Assembly (NCBI RefSeq): GCF_013276795.1
Contig: NZ_VMLR01000003.1
Location: 248,001 to 312,000, forward strand
DNA from: Streptococcus sp. 2342
GTDB taxonomy: Bacteria; Bacillota; Bacilli; Lactobacillales; Streptococcaceae
Direction of reading: 5' to 3'
Length of the DNA stretch: 64,000 bases
The notes beneath the pieces were generated by a model. It saw only the letters and a list, made by a program, of their open reading frames with translations, was not told the origin of the DNA and did not search any database. Made by a program: the position numbers and the translations under genes. This document shows, piece after piece, positions 1,990-58,016 of this stretch (position 1 is its first letter; each line of letters opens with the position of its first letter).

Positions 1990-3516
1990 ATGATGAAAAA
2001 AGAAATGAAACATGCTTTAGTAGCTTTAGGACTGTCAACTTTACTAGTCCCAACTTTTGCCAGTCAAGTAGTTTCTGCGCAGGAAGAAAGCCATGAAACT
2101 ACCACTAGTGTGAGTCCAGAAGAGGTTAATAAAAAAATTGAGGAAACGAAGCAATTTTTAATTGATTTGATTAAACAAAATATCTTTGAACAGGTTGATC
2201 AAGGAGACTGGGATACAGTTTCTTTTTCCAAGAGTGATGTAAGCTCTATTAGAGATAAATTAAGAGAAGAACTTAATTATAGGTTACAAGATTTCATGGG
2301 AGAGTTAGAATATATAAGGAAGTATAGTTTAGAAGGAAAAATTCCTTTGGAAGAGTTACCAAATATTTTATCAGAGTTTAAGAACAAATCTAAAAAAAAC
2401 TACATTGATCGTTATAGAGAAAAAGATAATTTTTTTGGTCATAGAATGAAGTATATTGTTGCTGAACTTGCTATACTAAAGAAAATGAATCTGGTAATTT
2501 CTCAAATAAATAATGATTCTCACTATACAGAATTAGAGAAAAAAGAAATGTTAGCTAGAGTTTCAAGCTACTACGCACCTGGTTTTCATCAATCTGGTTT
2601 ATATGTTGATAGTGATAAGTATTTAACTTTATTTAATAATCAAGATAATTTAAATACTTATCTTAAGAAAGTTTCTCTATTTTTATCTAACAATCATTAT
2701 CCGATTTCTACAGTACCTAAGGAAAAAAATATACGGGAAATTAATGCTGTTGCCTTTATGGAGAAGACAGCCATTAGTAATGACGATACACTTTCGAAAG
2801 CAGAAAAGATTTCTATGTTTAGTAAGATTGATGATATAGTTGAAGAAGGGATACATAAAGTCAAGAAGGAAGCTGGTCTTTTACATGAGGAGAAACCTGA
2901 ATTAGTACACATGCTATCCCCTGAAGAGTTATCTGTATTTACTAAGCGTATCGAAGATGTTTACCAAGGAAAAGCTAAGCCTAAGGTAACAAAAGAAGAG
3001 GCTATTCAAGCAGTTTCTACTGGAACTTCATCCTCAGTTTTATCTCAATCTAAATCTAATGTTACCACTAATGGAGAGACTAAGAAAAATCATCAAGCAA
3101 GTAAGTGGTTTAAAGAGTCTGGAAAATGGTACTATAATGACCTTTCTGGTAACCTTGTAAGAAACCGTTGGGTAGGCCGTTATTATCTAAAAGCAGATGC
3201 TTCAATGGCTGCAAGTGAATGGATTTATGATGAAGACTATAAGAGCTGGTTTTATGTAGATTCAACTGGTAGTTATGTGGAGAAAGCTTGGCAGGGCGAA
3301 TACTACCTAAAACGTGGCGGTTACATGGCTAAGAGTGAGTGGGTATTTGATTCTCAGTATGATAGTTGGTATTATCTGAACCAAGATGGTAAGTATGCTC
3401 GTAACCAATGGATTAAAGATGGGGATAAGTGGTATTACTTGTTAGCTGATGGAAAATTGGCAAAAAATATGACCATTAACGGCTATAAAGTAAATGAAAA
3501 AGGTGAATGGGTATAA
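1990..3516 (+). CDS. Secreted choline-binding surface protein
   Basis: A 508-residue protein (507 if the second ATG at 1993, better spaced from the GGAG, is used). A Lys-rich start and hydrophobic core (residues about 7-30, ending FASQVVSA) form a Sec signal peptide. Residues about 35-320 are a charged, largely helical domain I do not recognise. From about residue 375 there are cell-wall-binding repeats with the W-x-Y-Y/F aromatic pattern, ending in the GYKVNEKGEWV cap seen in pneumococcal choline-binding proteins. Such repeats hold the protein non-covalently on phosphocholine of teichoic acids. Several repeats are degenerate. Its place after UPF0210 with a short spacer looks like a lineage-specific insertion; no specific Cbp name is assigned. 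Confidence 0.85.
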   Translation: MMKKEMKHALVALGLSTLLVPTFASQVVSAQEESHETTTSVSPEEVNKKIEETKQFLIDLIKQNIFEQVDQGDWDTVSFSKSDVSSIRDKLREELNYRLQDFMGELEYIRKYSLEGKIPLEELPNILSEFKNKSKKNYIDRYREKDNFFGHRMKYIVAELAILKKMNLVISQINNDSHYTELEKKEMLARVSSYYAPGFHQSGLYVDSDKYLTLFNNQDNLNTYLKKVSLFLSNNHYPISTVPKEKNIREINAVAFMEKTAISNDDTLSKAEKISMFSKIDDIVEEGIHKVKKEAGLLHEEKPELVHMLSPEELSVFTKRIEDVYQGKAKPKVTKEEAIQAVSTGTSSSVLSQSKSNVTTNGETKKNHQASKWFKESGKWYYNDLSGNLVRNRWVGRYYLKADASMAASEWIYDEDYKSWFYVDSTGSYVEKAWQGEYYLKRGGYMAKSEWVFDSQYDSWYYLNQDGKYARNQWIKDGDKWYYLLADGKLAKNMTINGYKVNEKGEWV

Positions 3517-6201: not shown

Positions 6202-7282
6202 GGTTGACTCCTTTTATCAGGTTTTGGGAACCATCTGCAGAAAAGACGTTTAATTTTTGGGTATTGATTCGTAGACGAATACGATCGCCTTTTTGTAGAT
6301 CTTCTTCAAAAGTTGATTCTTCACTAACTTGAATTTTTGAGGCAAAGCCTGTCTCGATGAAATACTCCGTATTTAGTCCAAGATAGACGCTATCGCTAAT
6401 AGTTCCTTCAATATCTCCAGATTCATCTTTGATAAATTCTTCTGGACGAATGCTTACATGAATAGCTTGTGCCTCAGCATGATCAAGAGCTGGCATTCGA
6501 AGGGCATAGCCATCTGAAAAGACGATATAAGCGCCATCGCTCCGTTTTTCGAGATTGGCAGGGATAATATTTGTGCGTCCGATAAAGGTTGCTACAAACT
6601 CATTAGCTGGTTTATGATAGAGTTCTTTTGGTCGGCCGATTTGTTGGATCACCCCATCTTTCATAACAGCAATTTGGTCTGAAATAGCCATAGCTTCTTC
6701 TTGGTCGTGGGTCACATAAACAGTTGTAATTCCCACTTCGTGTTGGATTTCTCGAATAGCTTGACGCATATCCAAGCGAAGTTTGGCATCTAGGTTACTA
6801 AGTGGTTCGTCCATGAGGAGAACACTTGGATTAACTGTTAAGGCACGTGCCAAGGCGACACGTTGTTGTTGTCCACCACTGAGTTTATCGGGCTTCCGAT
6901 CCGCATATTGAGCAATTTGCATGAGTTCAAGATATTTATTGGTCTGTTGGATCAATTCTTCTTTAGGGACTTTCTTTTGCTTGAGACCAAAAGCAACATT
7001 ATCTCGAACAGTCAAATGTGGGAAAATAGCGTAGTTTTGGAAAACCATCCCGATATTGCGTTTGCTGGGTTCCATATTATTGATTTTTGTATCATCGAAG
7101 TAAAATTCTCCGCCTTCGATACTGTTGAAACCTGCAATCATACGAAGAAGGGTCGTTTTCCCACACCCTGAAGGCCCAAGAAGGGTAAAGAGACTTCCTT
7201 TTGGAATTGTAATGTTCAAATTCTCAATAACAGGGACATCGTGGTAGATTTTTTTGGCGTTAATAATTTTGATCTCACTCAT
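6191..7282 (-). CDS. ABC transporter ATP-binding protein (iron(III)/spermidine type)
   Basis: A 363-residue ATPase of the importer class that energises the permease encoded downstream. Walker [10 protein letters not shown] is near residue 36, the Q-loop [10 protein letters not shown] near 80, the signature LSGGQQQR near 135, Walker [12 protein letters not shown] near 155, and the switch histidine in VTHDQEEA near 190. A C-terminal TOBE-like domain (about 235-350) is typical of FbpC/PotA-type subunits. It lies 12 bases downstream of a binding-protein gene in the same operon. Confidence 0.9.
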
Positions 7283-28816: not shown

Positions 28817-28855
28817 AATCCCCCGAGCTGTAAGGCTTGGGGGATTTTTCTATAG
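28817..28855 (+). terminator. Terminator after the luciferase-like gene
   Basis: AATCCCCCGAGC pairs with GCTTGGGGGATT around TGTAAG, then TTTTT. Confidence 0.88.
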
Positions 28856-28865
28856 GAGGGCTAGT

Positions 28866-28972
28866 TTAGTTCTCTTTTTTGTTTTTTAGCAAGAACCCGA
28901 GACCTAGAAGGGCAAGGAGGTTGATTCCTGCCAACAGGAGTTTGTTATCGTTGAGCTTCCTGTATTTGGATT
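28866..28972 (-). pseudogene. Fossil LPXTG sorting signal downstream of spuA
   Basis: Read on the minus strand just past the spuA stop, 28949-28866 gives DNKLLLAGINLLALLGLGF followed by LLKNKKEN and a stop: a hydrophobic helix and positively charged tail exactly like the end of a sortase substrate. At 28972-28958, one frame away, lies NPNTG, one residue from LPNTG. A single inserted base would join them. The current spuA frame stops about 40 bases earlier, so this stretch is no longer translated as its C-terminus. Confidence 0.8.
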
Positions 28973-29011
28973 AGTTATATCTAGCTATGCAAAGGTTATA
29001 CAGTAGCAGTT

Positions 29012-32000
29012 TTAGCTAACCCATTCACCGTTTTCATTGACCAAATAGCCTTCAACTCTTGTATTAACTGCAAGTTTACCTGATGAATCAACATAGTACC
29101 ATTTGTCAGAAACTTCAAACCATTGATTTTCTTTCATAGCTCCTGATGGATCTAGATAGTACCAAGTATCTCCATCTTTAACCCAACCGGTTGACATAGA
29201 ACCGTTACTATTTAGGAAGTACCAAACATTGCCATCTTTTACCCAACCAGTTGACATAGAGCCATCATCTTTTAGATAATACCAAGTATCTCCATCTTTG
29301 ATCCAACCAGTAGCTAGAGAACCGTCTGCTTTATGGAAATACCAGATGCCATTTTCTTGTTTCCAACTAGCTTTAGTTGCCTGATTTGGAGTTTCCGGTT
29401 TCTTATTTGTATAAGCTGGAGTATAGGAAGTGACAATAGTTTGAGTAGGCGTAGATGGAAGTGATTGAGTATTATTGTCTTTATGTGGTTGTGAAGCTTG
29501 TGAACCAGTTGTAGCTTGGCTAGGTTTATTTTCTGCATCAGCTACTGTTGCAGATGGTTTAGTAGAATCAGGTTTAGCTTCTGGAGCTGGATCTTGATGT
29601 GCAGGGTGAGAAGCTTCATTTTGATGTTCAGGCTTGGAAGGGGTTGAGTCTGGTTTCTCTTCTGCAGTTGACTCATGGTTAGTTCCATTTTGAGAGACTC
29701 GAAGAACAGTAGCTGTAAGGGCATTCAATTTCAAACCTTTTTCAGTCCATTTAAGCCCTTGAGGGTTGGCAATTCCTACTGGTCCTGCTTGGTTTTCATC
29801 TGCCAAAACTTCAGCATTTCTGAGGTGGGCAAAGGCAGTTCCCAAATTAAATTCGCGAGCTTTTTCGTCCGCATTGACAAAGACTGCGTAGATATCACCG
29901 TTTGGAGCAGTAATTTGGTAGCCAATTACTACATCCTCTTTTTCTACACCATTTTGACCTGGAACAGTGATGAGGTGGACACGGTCTTTGATATCTTGGA
30001 GACTCTTAAGTCGGAAGGCATCTGTAGATTGACGAAGGGCAATCAACCCTTTCATATAGTCACGGCTCTTAACATTTTCAGGATAAGCTTTTCCATCTGT
30101 AGCCTTAGTCCAGTCAAACTTGTTGACTGCATCGCTAGAATCGTAAGAGTCATGGATGAAGTAAGGATAGTCAAATGGATTGCCGTCCTTATCACGCAAC
30201 AAGTGAGATTTGTTTGGTTGTTTGTCCTCTGCTACTGGAGTCTTGTAGGCTGGGTCACGGAATTGTTTAGTACGTCCGTATTCCTGACCAGAGTGGATAA
30301 ACGGAGTTCCTTGAGCAGTCAAGACCATGAGATTTCCAAGTCGCAAACGACGATGGATTTCAGCATAGTTCTCAGCCTTGCTTGGGTCTTTTTTAATAGA
30401 CTGAGCGATGATGTCAAAGAGGGTCAAGTTATCATGTGCTGCGATGTATTGGATGACATCTCCAGGACTGTCTGCTTCAAAGTTGGTTGGTTGAGCAATG
30501 AGATTTTTAAAGACAGTGTTGATATCACGCTTGCCACCTGTGATAAAGGCAGGTTGACCTTCGTTTGGATAACCAGATTTGAGGTTGTTACGGATGTCAT
30601 CTGAGAAGACAGCGACAGTATCGGTATGTTTCATCCAATCTTGGTCAGCAGCTTTAGTAGGCATGTTTTCATCGCCAGCATAGGTTCTCCAACCTTCACC
30701 AAGCATGATGAGGTTTGGATTGAGGGCGCGTGCAGCCTTGTAAGCTTCTTCGATAGAAGCCGCATCATGGTCTCCCATCATATCGAAGCGGAAGCCATCC
30801 ACTTTGTAGGTATCAACTAGATATTTGATAGAGTCAACTAGGAGCCGTTTGGTCATATAATGGGTTGTTCCCAAACGTCCACCACCAAAGCTAGTTCGAG
30901 GTGTCCCATCAGCATCCATAAAGTGGTAGTAGTTTGGCTCTAAATCTTCAAAGAGATTGACTTTAGCTGTATGGTTATAAACGACATCTAGGATAGCTCC
31001 CATGCCACGTTTGTGGATTTCGTTGATGAGGTTTTTAAATTCTGCGATTCGTTTTTCTGGATTCTTAGGATCGCTTGAGTACATACCAGTCAAGGAGAAG
31101 TAGTTTTGAGGGTCATATCCCCAGTTGTAGTTGCTGTTGCTTGAAGCATAGTCAGATAAGCGTTCGTGGTTCTTCAACTCATTGACAAAGTAGTAAGACA
31201 AGACTGGAAGGAGCTGGATGTGGGTTACACCCAAGTTTTTGAGGTAGTCTAGTTTTTCGATAAAGGCTTCAAAAGTACCAAATGGCTTAGTCAAATCTTT
31301 TGCGATGGCAGGATCTGAAGTGAAGTCACGCACATGAGCTTCATAGATGACAGCATCTTCGCGCGATTTGAAGTTGCGAATCTTACCATAAGTCAAGTCT
31401 TGAGGTCCTAGTTTAGCTGGGTCTACAAAGGCGGCTTTAGCCACTTTATGGGCATCGTCAATCTTAGCATCGTCACTATTCCAAGCAGCGAGGGATTTAG
31501 CGTAAGGATCGAGTGCAAGAACAGTTTTACCTTGACGCTCGATTTGGTATTGATAATAGTAGCCAGTGAAATCTGTGATTCCTAATTTGTTTGTGCTATC
31601 TAGAGTTTGTTTCCAAGTTCCTCTTTCCCCTTTTTCAAGAGCGACAGTTCCAACTACTTTTTCAGGGTCATTCTTGTCGTAGACAACAACAGAAACCTTA
31701 TCAGCACTTGGTGACCAGAGAGTTAAATCAACCTGTTTTCCTTCTTCTTTGAGTTCAGCTCCAAGTTTACCATCATAGCTGTAAGTCTCATCTTTCAGGC
31801 GCCAGCTTGTTTTGGTAGTGAATTTGTCAGAGTTGTAGCTAACGGTATAAGGATGTTTTGTGTCAGAGAAATCTCCGCTGTAGGTCACTTTCTTACCAGC
31901 TTCATCGATTGCAACATCGGTGATAGTTACTTTGTTTCCTAGGTGATTAGTGATGTTGGAGTGCTTGAGGATATCCTCTTTTTTAGCACCAACAAGTGTT

Positions 32001-33136
32001 GAAAAACTACTTTCAATGCTAGAAGTGCCTACGTGTTGGGCTCCTGTCATACGGATATCATGGACATAGTATGGATTTGTGTAAATCGATTCGTCATCGT
32101 CTTTTAGGAAAATTTGGCTATGATTTTTCAAATCTGTAAACTTATAATCTTCTTTACGGATTTTCACGTCGTCTCCTTGTTTGCTCTCATCTAATAGCAA
32201 AAATCCAAATTCTCTCGCAGCTTCATTAAGAGGAATGTCGATATAGCGACCGTATTTACCTGTAGCCGTAAAGTCTGTTCCGTCAGGCCATTGAGCGCTA
32301 CTTGGATTTTTCACATCTCCCCAGTACCAGAGAGATTTCTTGTCATAGTTGCCATCTGTGCGGTAGTAGTTGACGCGAACAGTTCCTGCAGGTTGTGGTT
32401 CGTAAGAGAAAACCTTGTAATCTTGGTCCAACCAAGCCTCATTCATCTTTGGTGCCAGTTTTTCTACAGATTTATCGCCGGTTAGATTTTTTCCAGCTGT
32501 ATTGTTGATGAGGAAGCTAATTTTCTTAGCTTGTTCTCCCTTTAATTTGACATCTAGGTAGTAGCCGTAGTCGTCTTTTTTAGCATCCTTGAAGGACAAG
32601 GCTCCGTTAGGCCAGTTTTCAGAAGGTTTTTCAACATCATCCCAAGTCCAGAGTCCTTGAGCATCCTTGTTTTCTTCAGGAAGTTTTTTGACATGGATAC
32701 GGAAGTAGTTGTCTTCGATTGGCTCTTCTGCCTTAGTTTCAGTTGCTACTGGACTAGTAGAAGTAGTTGGCTCATTTGAACGATCTTGTCCAGTTTGTGG
32801 TGCTGAATCGGCTGGGCTTGCAACAGGAGTTGTTGGATCTGTTGCAGGTTTTTCTTCTGCTTTCTCTAGGGAAGCGTTTGCATTTTCGAGTGAAGAAATA
32901 TCACTTTCCTTCTTACCAGAGCCAGCTGCTGTATCAGTAAGAGGTTGGGCAAGGATGGTTGTATTTCCGTTGCTGGGTTCGTTAGTGGTTGTTGTACTTT
33001 CGTCGGCTGAGATAGTTGGCGTAGCCATAGCAAGTAGGACAAGGCTTGCGCCGATAAGGACAGAACCAGTTCCATTCTTGAGGGAACGGATGCTGTAGAC
33101 CATTTTTTTCTCAGTTTGAGCTGGTGTTTTTCTCAT
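29012..33136 (-). CDS. spuA: Surface pullulanase with choline-binding C-terminus
   Basis: A 1374-residue secreted glycogen/alpha-glucan-debranching enzyme of family GH13. The signal peptide carries a YSIRSLKNGTGS variant of the YSIRK motif (about residues 14-45). A Ser/Thr/Pro linker, two CBM41 domains (about 140-350, each with a W-x-W-D-D/G-x-V motif), a CBM48-like domain (about 450-550) and the catalytic barrel follow; the nucleophile is in GFRFDMMG (about 783), the acid in MLGEGW (about 812), and the third acid in AAHDN (about 899). After a Pro/Gln linker come about five cell-wall-binding repeats (about 1255-1374) ending GYLVNENGEWVS. Known SpuA proteins end in an LPXTG anchor instead; a frame-broken one remains downstream. 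A perfect cre lies upstream. Confidence 0.93.
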   Translation of the reverse strand: MRKTPAQTEKKMVYSIRSLKNGTGSVLIGASLVLLAMATPTISADESTTTTNEPSNGNTTILAQPLTDTAAGSGKKESDISSLENANASLEKAEEKPATDPTTPVASPADSAPQTGQDRSNEPTTSTSPVATETKAEEPIEDNYFRIHVKKLPEENKDAQGLWTWDDVEKPSENWPNGALSFKDAKKDDYGYYLDVKLKGEQAKKISFLINNTAGKNLTGDKSVEKLAPKMNEAWLDQDYKVFSYEPQPAGTVRVNYYRTDGNYDKKSLWYWGDVKNPSSAQWPDGTDFTATGKYGRYIDIPLNEAAREFGFLLLDESKQGDDVKIRKEDYKFTDLKNHSQIFLKDDDESIYTNPYYVHDIRMTGAQHVGTSSIESSFSTLVGAKKEDILKHSNITNHLGNKVTITDVAIDEAGKKVTYSGDFSDTKHPYTVSYNSDKFTTKTSWRLKDETYSYDGKLGAELKEEGKQVDLTLWSPSADKVSVVVYDKNDPEKVVGTVALEKGERGTWKQTLDSTNKLGITDFTGYYYQYQIERQGKTVLALDPYAKSLAAWNSDDAKIDDAHKVAKAAFVDPAKLGPQDLTYGKIRNFKSREDAVIYEAHVRDFTSDPAIAKDLTKPFGTFEAFIEKLDYLKNLGVTHIQLLPVLSYYFVNELKNHERLSDYASSNSNYNWGYDPQNYFSLTGMYSSDPKNPEKRIAEFKNLINEIHKRGMGAILDVVYNHTAKVNLFEDLEPNYYHFMDADGTPRTSFGGGRLGTTHYMTKRLLVDSIKYLVDTYKVDGFRFDMMGDHDAASIEEAYKAARALNPNLIMLGEGWRTYAGDENMPTKAADQDWMKHTDTVAVFSDDIRNNLKSGYPNEGQPAFITGGKRDINTVFKNLIAQPTNFEADSPGDVIQYIAAHDNLTLFDIIAQSIKKDPSKAENYAEIHRRLRLGNLMVLTAQGTPFIHSGQEYGRTKQFRDPAYKTPVAEDKQPNKSHLLRDKDGNPFDYPYFIHDSYDSSDAVNKFDWTKATDGKAYPENVKSRDYMKGLIALRQSTDAFRLKSLQDIKDRVHLITVPGQNGVEKEDVVIGYQITAPNGDIYAVFVNADEKAREFNLGTAFAHLRNAEVLADENQAGPVGIANPQGLKWTEKGLKLNALTATVLRVSQNGTNHESTAEEKPDSTPSKPEHQNEASHPAHQDPAPEAKPDSTKPSATVADAENKPSQATTGSQASQPHKDNNTQSLPSTPTQTIVTSYTPAYTNKKPETPNQATKASWKQENGIWYFHKADGSLATGWIKDGDTWYYLKDDGSMSTGWVKDGNVWYFLNSNGSMSTGWVKDGDTWYYLDPSGAMKENQWFEVSDKWYYVDSSGKLAVNTRVEGYLVNENGEWVS

Positions 33137-57065: not shown

Positions 57066-58016
57066 ATGGAAATTGATGTGAGTAAATTAAGAACAGATTT
57101 GCCTCAAGTCGGCGTGCAACCATATAGGCAAGTCCATGCCCATTCCACAGGCAACCGTAACTCAACGGTGCAAAATGAGGCTGACTACCATTACAGAAAA
57201 GATCCTGAATTGGGCTTCTTTTCACACGTAGTCGGTAATGGTCGTGTTATGCAGGTAGGACCTGTTGATAATGGTGCCTGGGACGTTGGGGGCGGTTGGA
57301 ATGCAGAAGGTTATGCACAAGTTGAACTGATTGAAAGTCATGAATCAAAAGAAGAGTTTCTGATTGACTATCGCCTCTATATCGAACTCTTGCGCAATCT
57401 AGCAGACGAGGCTGGGATACCTAAAACGCTTGATACTGCTGATTTAGCAGGTATCAAGACACACGAATACTGCACCAATAACCAACCCGATAATAACTCA
57501 GATCACATTGACCCCTATCCTTATCTTGCCAAATGGGGTATTAGCCGTGAGAAGTTTAAGCAGGATGTTGAAAACGGCTTGACGATTGAAGCAGGATGGC
57601 AACAGAACGATACTGGCACCTGGTATGTACACTCAGATGGTTCTTATCCAAAAGATAAGTTTGAGAAAGTAAATGGTACTTGGTATTACTTTGACGGTTC
57701 AGGATATATGCTTGCAGACCGTTGGAAGAAGCACATAGACGGCAACTGGTACTGGTTTGATCAGTCAGGCGAAATGGCTACAGGCTGGAAGAAAATCGCT
57801 GAGAAGTGGTACTATTTCGATGGAGAAGGTGCTATGAAAACAGGCTGGATCAAATACAAGGAGACTTGGTACTATCTTGATAGTCAAAATGGGGACATGG
57901 TTTCCAATGCCTTTGTCAAATCAAATGATGGCTGGTATTACCTTAAAGAAGATGGTACGATAGCAGAAAAACCAGAATTTACAGTCGAGCCTGAAGGCTT
58001 GATAACAGTAAAATAA
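57066..58016 (+). CDS. lytA: N-acetylmuramoyl-L-alanine amidase LytA, atypical allele
   Basis: A 316-residue autolysin without signal peptide. The amidase domain (1-175) has the zinc and catalytic residues H26, E87 and H133 at pneumococcal positions. Six choline-binding repeats follow (about 177-310) and the tail [12 protein letters not shown]. Two residues, the Thr-Gly at 290-291 of the 318-residue typical enzyme, are missing after Gly289 (junction 57932/57933), which defines the atypical LytA group of S. mitis and S. pseudopneumoniae, known to be inhibited rather than activated by deoxycholate. It lies at the conserved chromosomal site after dinF, not in a prophage. Confidence 0.97.

What the first reader, a model, noticed from the sequence alone, without database searches (positions are those of the whole stretch)
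28866..29400. Pullulanase SpuA has swapped its sortase anchor for a choline-binding module, with the old anchor still visible as a fossil
The spuA frame ends in about five cell-wall-binding repeats (GYLVNENGEWVS cap), whereas known SpuA proteins end in LPXTG. About 40 bases past the stop, the same strand encodes DNKLLLAGINLLALLGLGF plus a KNKKEN tail, and an NPNTG one frame away. That is a decayed sorting signal, so the choline-binding repeats were inserted upstream of it, probably by recombination with a cbp gene. The enzyme would move from covalent peptidoglycan linkage to non-covalent teichoic acid binding.
Basis: partly seen in the sequence, partly recalled or inferred. Interest (0 to 1): 0.82.

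Follow-up and report, generated by a model that had tools for sequence, protein, structure and literature searches.

The report
Pullulanase with a swapped wall anchor
In this mitis-group Streptococcus the surface enzyme SpuA, a predicted glycogen-cutting pullulanase, ends in a choline-binding-type tail instead of the LPXTG wall anchor of its relatives, with the broken old anchor still readable just behind the gene, so the enzyme would likely be held to teichoic acids rather than bonded to peptidoglycan.

Summary
Observation confirmed. spuA (29012-33136, minus) encodes a complete 1374-aa pullulanase ending in five choline-binding repeats plus cap. From 41 bases past its stop, 106 columns match the 3' end of an LPXTG-type spuA at 94% identity, split over two frames. 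Of 80 SpuA loci from other genomes, 72 end in LPxTG, 7 in the same choline-binding tail, 1 in LPKTA. LPXTG is therefore ancestral and the remnant a real fossil. All nine choline-type alleles share the 5' junction, and the remnant sits in the same place in the eight that can be read, pointing to one origin. Yet the tail sits on two stalk types, in strains that gyrA and proS place in no single clade, and is less diverged than the backbone, so it probably spread by homologous recombination. The repeats are under purifying selection. No donor was found (best 79% DNA identity). A sialidase in the same genome shows a similar anchor difference. PspC/Hic is a pneumococcal precedent, hence new variant of a known kind. 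Choline binding and location are predicted, not shown.

The parts
29012..33136 (-). spuA, pullulanase with choline-binding C-terminus, 1374 aa, complete
   Evidence: orthologues of the same architecture up to 96% identical
29366..29485 (-). Linker of 40 aa seen only in choline-type spuA (starts HKDNNTQ); its start is the 5' junction with the ancestral stalk
   Evidence: in 284 Streptococcus genomes the linker search hit choline-type spuA in 8 genomes and elsewhere only short matches of at most 57 bases
29012..29365 (-). Choline-binding module: five repeats plus cap, then stop (29012-29014)
   Evidence: relatives with solved structures include CbpJ and CbpF
28971..29011 (-). Spacer between the new stop and the remnant, origin unknown
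   Evidence: A 27-base piece with up to 3 mismatches occurs in 7 of 279 genomes, once each, all at choline-type spuA loci
28866..28970 (-). Remnant of the LPXTG sorting signal up to and including the old stop
   Evidence: 100 of 106 columns identical to a functional orthologue, L025; alignment
28958..28972 (-). NPNTG, remnant of the sortase motif, in spuA's frame but past its stop
   Evidence: mitis-group orthologues have LPNTG here
28869..28949 (-). Remnant of hydrophobic segment and charged tail, in another frame
   Evidence: orthologues end in nearly the same peptide in frame
28817..28846 (.). Terminator-like hairpin beyond the remnant, likely the original spuA terminator shared with the convergent gene
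   Evidence: reported on the plus strand; the stem reads as a hairpin on both strands; a similar hairpin follows LPXTG alleles

Best explanation
The LPXTG sorting signal of SpuA was likely replaced once, by recombination, with a linker and five choline-binding repeats that are predicted to hold the enzyme to phosphocholine on teichoic acids, and the displaced signal persists as an out-of-frame remnant 41 bases past the new stop. Shown: architecture, remnant, LPXTG ancestry, shared 5' junction. Inferred: the new tail then spread among mitis-group strains by homologous recombination, with the stalk on one side and the remnant plus downstream DNA on the other as homology arms. Inferred: sortase A no longer sees SpuA in these strains, while its signal peptide, glycogen-binding modules and catalytic domain are kept.
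For: Domain content. Of 80 SpuA loci fetched from other genomes, 72 end in LPxTG and 7 in the choline-binding tail. The remnant matches at 100 of 106 columns, score 186 against a shuffled maximum of 39. All nine choline-type alleles (window, L009-L013, L027, L049, L176) have the same linker start after the ancestral stalk. Spread: both stalk types occur with both anchors (type a: 7 choline, 3 LPXTG; type b: 2 choline, 12 LPXTG; 8 more LPXTG alleles not classed by the motif, 3 of them b-like). Strains with the tail are rejected as one clade by gyrA (p-AU 4e-64) and proS (p-AU 8e-6). Tail pS is 0.11 against 0.18 for the backbone of the same 7 alleles. Selection: repeats pN/pS 0.10 in 8 alleles. 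The genome also has 20 LPXTG-type anchor matches, three LicD homologues and 77 choline-binding repeat matches, so both anchoring routes are probably live.
Against: No donor gene was found. On the spuA backbone itself the choline-type alleles do cluster (3 changes against a shuffled mean of 7.9, 0 of 500 shuffles as low), and one clade is only marginally disfavoured (p-AU 0.05). On gyrA the carriers are also partly clustered (24 of 500 shuffles as low; proS 296 of 500). The absence of fixed differences around the cassette has little power: a well-supported clade of six also shows none. Differences among 7 remnants still fall mostly in third codon positions (2.67 of 4.0 mean differences; 3.48 of 4.41 among 15 working anchors), so the remnants have not decayed freely for long or were refreshed by exchange. 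The 3' junction is not identical in all: L009, L012 and L176 are altered there. Choline binding and location are untested.
Confidence: 0.9

Rival explanations
1. Assembly or sequencing artefact: a cbp 3' end was misjoined to spuA, or the real frame still runs into LPXTG.
For: The window's genome is a draft of 23 contigs.
Against: The same 5' junction is found in eight other genomes, one of them a single contig of 2.3 Mb, with different states of the remnant in different strains.
Confidence: 0.01
2. Repeated independent swaps: different strains gained the choline-binding tail separately at a hot spot.
For: Strains with the tail are not one clade by gyrA or proS; two stalk types carry it.
Against: Identical 5' junction and linker start in nine alleles, the same spacer in the seven genomes, and only about 11% synonymous divergence among the tails fit one origin plus exchange far better.
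Confidence: 0.05
3. Vertical descent of one swap with later reversions to LPXTG by recombination in some lineages, rather than spread of the choline tail.
For: Choline-type alleles cluster on the backbone tree; three changes may be one gain and two losses.
Against: The tail is less diverged than its backbones, and gyrA puts two carriers (G271, G232) in a different, moderately supported group. Both directions of exchange may have occurred.
Confidence: 0.25

Closest known systems
SpuA of Streptococcus pneumoniae (SP_0268) and streptococcal PulA/SAP pullulanases
   Same: Same domain order up to the C-terminal stalk; SpuA and PulA are described as anchored by LPXTG (PMC2582482, passages seen), and a table of wall-anchor proteins lists pulA for S. 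mitis B6 and NCTC12261, S. pneumoniae R6 and S. pseudopneumoniae IS7493 (PMC3686770, passages seen)
   Different: Here the LPXTG signal is replaced by a choline-binding module and survives only as a remnant
PspC/CbpA (choline-binding) versus LPXTG-type PspC2/Hic in pneumococcus (the name Hic from memory)
   Same: One surface protein family exists with either anchor; in strain BHN418 the choline form sat at division sites and the LPXTG form mainly at poles (PMC6107515, passages seen)
   Different: There the two forms are separate, closely linked pspC genes of a factor H-binding protein. Here it is one enzyme locus with alternative alleles and a fossil of the old anchor. The same paper found that exchanging the PspC1 anchor did not by itself move PspC1 from division sites
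Choline-binding proteins of S. mitis B6, said to evolve by duplication and recombination (PMC2828477, passages seen)
   Same: C-terminal 20-residue repeats
   Different: The text does not hold 'pullul' or 'spuA' and holds 'pulA' once (listing), a passage I did not see
Sialidase with choline-binding repeats in the same genome and in S. pseudopneumoniae (P0009)
   Same: Secreted glycosidase with a choline-binding tail, while relatives 67-72% identical mostly end in LPXTG
   Different: No anchor remnant seen by eye within 400 bases downstream; different linker

Membership tests
SpuA-type pullulanase | YSIRK signal, PUD/CBM41 pair, CBM48, GH13 domain, SpuA_C | tested here: met
SpuA-type pullulanase | C-terminal LPXTG sorting signal | tested here: not met
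   only an out-of-frame remnant past the stop
SpuA-type pullulanase | Pullulanase activity | not testable with these tools
   needs an enzyme assay
Choline-binding proteins | Tandem about 20-residue choline-binding repeats over Pfam cut-off | tested here: met
   (Choline_bind_1 95.3 bits against 20.5); matches to solved choline-binding proteins such as CbpJ, CbpF and the major autolysin
Choline-binding proteins | Host makes phosphocholine-decorated teichoic acid | tested here: inconclusive
   Three LicD homologues in the genome fit it; chemistry not tested
Choline-binding proteins | Binds choline and is eluted by it | not testable with these tools
   needs bench work
Sortase substrates | LPXTG, hydrophobic stretch and charged tail in one frame at the C-terminus | tested here: not met
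Decayed sorting signal (fossil) | Significant alignment to functional anchors, collinear, with disabling changes | tested here: met
   differing decay among strains

The most novel reading that the evidence does not exclude
The 3' end of spuA is an exchangeable anchor cassette in mitis-group streptococci. The choline tail moves between strains by transformation, the dead LPXTG remnant behind it serves as the homology arm that keeps exchange going, and these bacteria thereby switch extracellular glycosidases (SpuA, a sialidase) between sortase and teichoic-acid anchoring.
Probability: 0.45. Interest if true: 0.65.

Novelty: new variant of a known kind. Interest (0 to 1): 0.5.

Why it matters
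SpuA is treated as an LPXTG protein of streptococci. Here an intact, selected enzyme has a different predicted attachment route in some lineages of the same species complex, and a molecular fossil fixes the direction of change. Natural strains with either form are an experiment already made on what anchoring mode does to a surface enzyme: where it sits, whether it is released, and who can use the maltodextrins it makes. For annotators and for surface-antigen work, anchoring class cannot be assumed from orthology.

Tried and rejected
Donor search: own genome (best non-self 76% DNA identity), 284 genus genomes (best outside spuA 79%), linker alone (elsewhere only matches of 57 bases or less), spacer pattern (only spuA loci), protein collection (only the best 120 rows were listed) and a local blastp against ORFs of all fetched loci and proteins, spuA left out (best 67%). 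None qualifies as donor. One search found nothing, not even the orthologues known, presumably because the 90% clusters are represented by LPXTG forms; so that collection gives no census of the choline type.

Fixed versus shared sites around the cassette looked strong at first (0 fixed in 3302 backbone, 80 remnant-core and 699 downstream-gene sites). Six of the 32 alleles (L023, L026, L028, L030, L038, L050) were left out of that count. The control showed that the test has little power: a supported clade of six also had 0 fixed, and shared sites were 369 against 420 +/- 13 for random sets of nine. I do not rely on it. The first backbone tree without L176 gave 4 changes; with L176 it gave 3. L010 (shorter backbone) was left out of the pN/pS of the backbone, and L013 (one repeat fewer) out of that of the tail.

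A lost or broken sortase was considered, because the Pfam sortase search gave only a partial match under the cut-off. The gene next to gyrA is readable at both ends, and its middle reads X, so no loss is claimed. Readthrough or frameshift into the old signal was considered and judged implausible because stops and two frames intervene. No structure was predicted.

Literature: searches in the PMC open library. In their listings and the passages seen I found no report of a choline-binding SpuA. No paper was read whole, and subscription papers are mostly not covered.

Full report
What is there. The window holds a complete spuA on the minus strand (29012-33136, 1374 aa). Pfam places a YSIRK signal peptide, two PUD stretches, CBM48, the alpha-amylase (GH13) domain and SpuA_C, followed by choline-binding repeats far over cut-off. 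The last 157 residues are a 40-residue linker and a module of five repeats plus cap. [quoted passage not shown]

The remnant. From 41 bases past the stop, 28866-28970 aligns to the 3' end of an LPXTG-type spuA (L025) at 100 of 106 columns, score 186 against a maximum of 39 in 100 shuffles. NPNTG is in spuA's frame and the hydrophobic plus charged part in another. A similar terminator-like hairpin follows the remnant and LPXTG alleles, so the remnant probably lies in the transcribed 3' untranslated region; that step is inferred.

Ancestral state. A scan of a collection with one genome per species found 265 stretches encoding a relative; the best 80 were kept. In those 80, 72 proteins end in LPxTG, 7 in the choline-binding module and 1 in LPKTA (recounted with the frame under the match). 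S. oralis, S. infantis, S. sanguinis and more distant species are LPXTG. LPXTG is therefore ancestral. Published descriptions also call SpuA and PulA LPXTG proteins (PMC2582482, passages), and pulA is tabled among wall-anchor proteins of S. mitis B6, NCTC12261, S. pneumoniae R6 and S. pseudopneumoniae IS7493 (PMC3686770, passages).

Who has the tail. The DNA block occurs in 8 of 284 Streptococcus genomes searched. Named carriers are S. thalassemiae (L009), strains filed as S. mitis (L011, L013) and as S. pneumoniae SMRU824 (L010), and Streptococcus sp. (L012, L027, L049). The species names are the records' labels; I did not test them.

One origin. In all nine alleles the linker begins at the same place after an ancestral stalk motif, and 7 of 279 genomes share the spacer, at spuA only. 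The remnant can be read in eight alleles (L013's contig ends before it). Five of them keep an NPNTG-like part (window, L010, L011, L027, L049). L009 and L176 lack it, and L012 has a short tandem expansion in its place. L011 has an insertion between stop and remnant (L013 starts the same one), and L027 an insertion behind it.

Spread. (1) Two stalk types occur with both anchors: type a 7 choline and 3 LPXTG, type b 2 choline and 12 LPXTG; 8 more LPXTG alleles escaped the motif, 3 of them b-like; 32 alleles in all. (2) With 29 genomes (8 carriers), gyrA rejects the carriers as one clade (p-AU 4e-64) and so does proS (8e-6); on gyrA the carriers are still partly clustered (24 of 500 shuffles as low), on proS not (296 of 500). 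The tails of all 21 other genomes were read and are LPXTG. (3) The tail has pS 0.11 while the backbone of the same 7 alleles has 0.18. (4) Over an 80-base core of the remnant, 4 of 8 are nearest to an LPXTG allele, 3 are tied and 1 is nearest to another remnant; L010 and L049 are identical to L020 and L043 there. Against: the carriers cluster on the spuA backbone tree, and one clade there is only marginally rejected (p-AU 0.05). So exchange is well supported, but its direction and number of events are open.

Kept by selection. In 8 equal-length alleles the repeats show pN/pS 0.10 and the linker 0.33; the backbone of 8 choline-type alleles shows pN 0.015 and pS 0.185. The new tail is therefore probably functional. 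The genome has the setting for both routes: 20 LPXTG-type anchor matches, 77 choline-binding repeat matches and three LicD homologues. A sortase gene lies beside gyrA; its middle could not be read.

Mechanism. The most likely course is one illegitimate recombination that joined a linker-plus-repeats 3' end to the spuA stalk, removing part of the stalk (about 35 residues against L018) and leaving the sorting signal beyond the new stop. The freed signal then lost frame and motif, and the cassette spread by transformation-type exchange. The predicted outcome is that SpuA is held by phosphocholine on teichoic acids, reversible by choline, and no longer a sortase substrate. Whether this changes its place on the cell is uncertain. 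In pneumococcus, choline-type PspC1 and LPXTG-type PspC2 sat at different places, but an LPXTG version of PspC1 stayed at division sites (PMC6107515, passages).

A parallel. The same genome has a sialidase (G000:C20:90421-93345 for the matched part) that ends in a choline-binding module. Matches of 97-99% to P0009 occur in 6 of 279 genomes, 5 of which also carry the choline-type spuA (in one of the 6 the module is partly unreadable). Of the 24 next-best loci read (67-72% identity), 22 end in LPXTG, one is cut by unreadable bases and one has LPETR. No anchor remnant was seen by eye in the 400 bases behind it in the five readable loci.

Verdict. PspC makes the kind known; an anchor replacement at one enzyme locus, shared by several lineages and with the fossil in place, appears new in the searches made.

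Noticed in passing
G000:C20:90421-93345 (L188), outside the window: A sialidase of the same genome ends in choline-binding repeats, while relatives 67-72% identical mostly end in LPXTG; 5 of 6 genomes with it also have the choline-type spuA.
   Followed up: partly
L011 (after position 7155), L013, and L027 behind the remnant: Insertions of roughly 100-150 bases next to the spuA 3' end that look like RUP elements (identification from memory, no call).
   Followed up: no
L012, just past the spuA stop: Short tandem expansion of a roughly 10-12-base unit stands in place of the NPNTG part of the remnant.
   Followed up: no
L013, spuA 3' end: This allele has one choline-binding repeat fewer than the others, so repeat number varies.
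   Followed up: no
window 3403-3456 and 57657-57959 (+): Further choline-binding repeats lie at two other places in the window, in open frames of 510 and 317 aa (converted from contig coordinates).
   Followed up: no
L050 (Streptococcus sp. M334): SpuA with an oralis-like stalk and a mitis-like charged tail, another sign of mosaic 3' ends.
   Followed up: no
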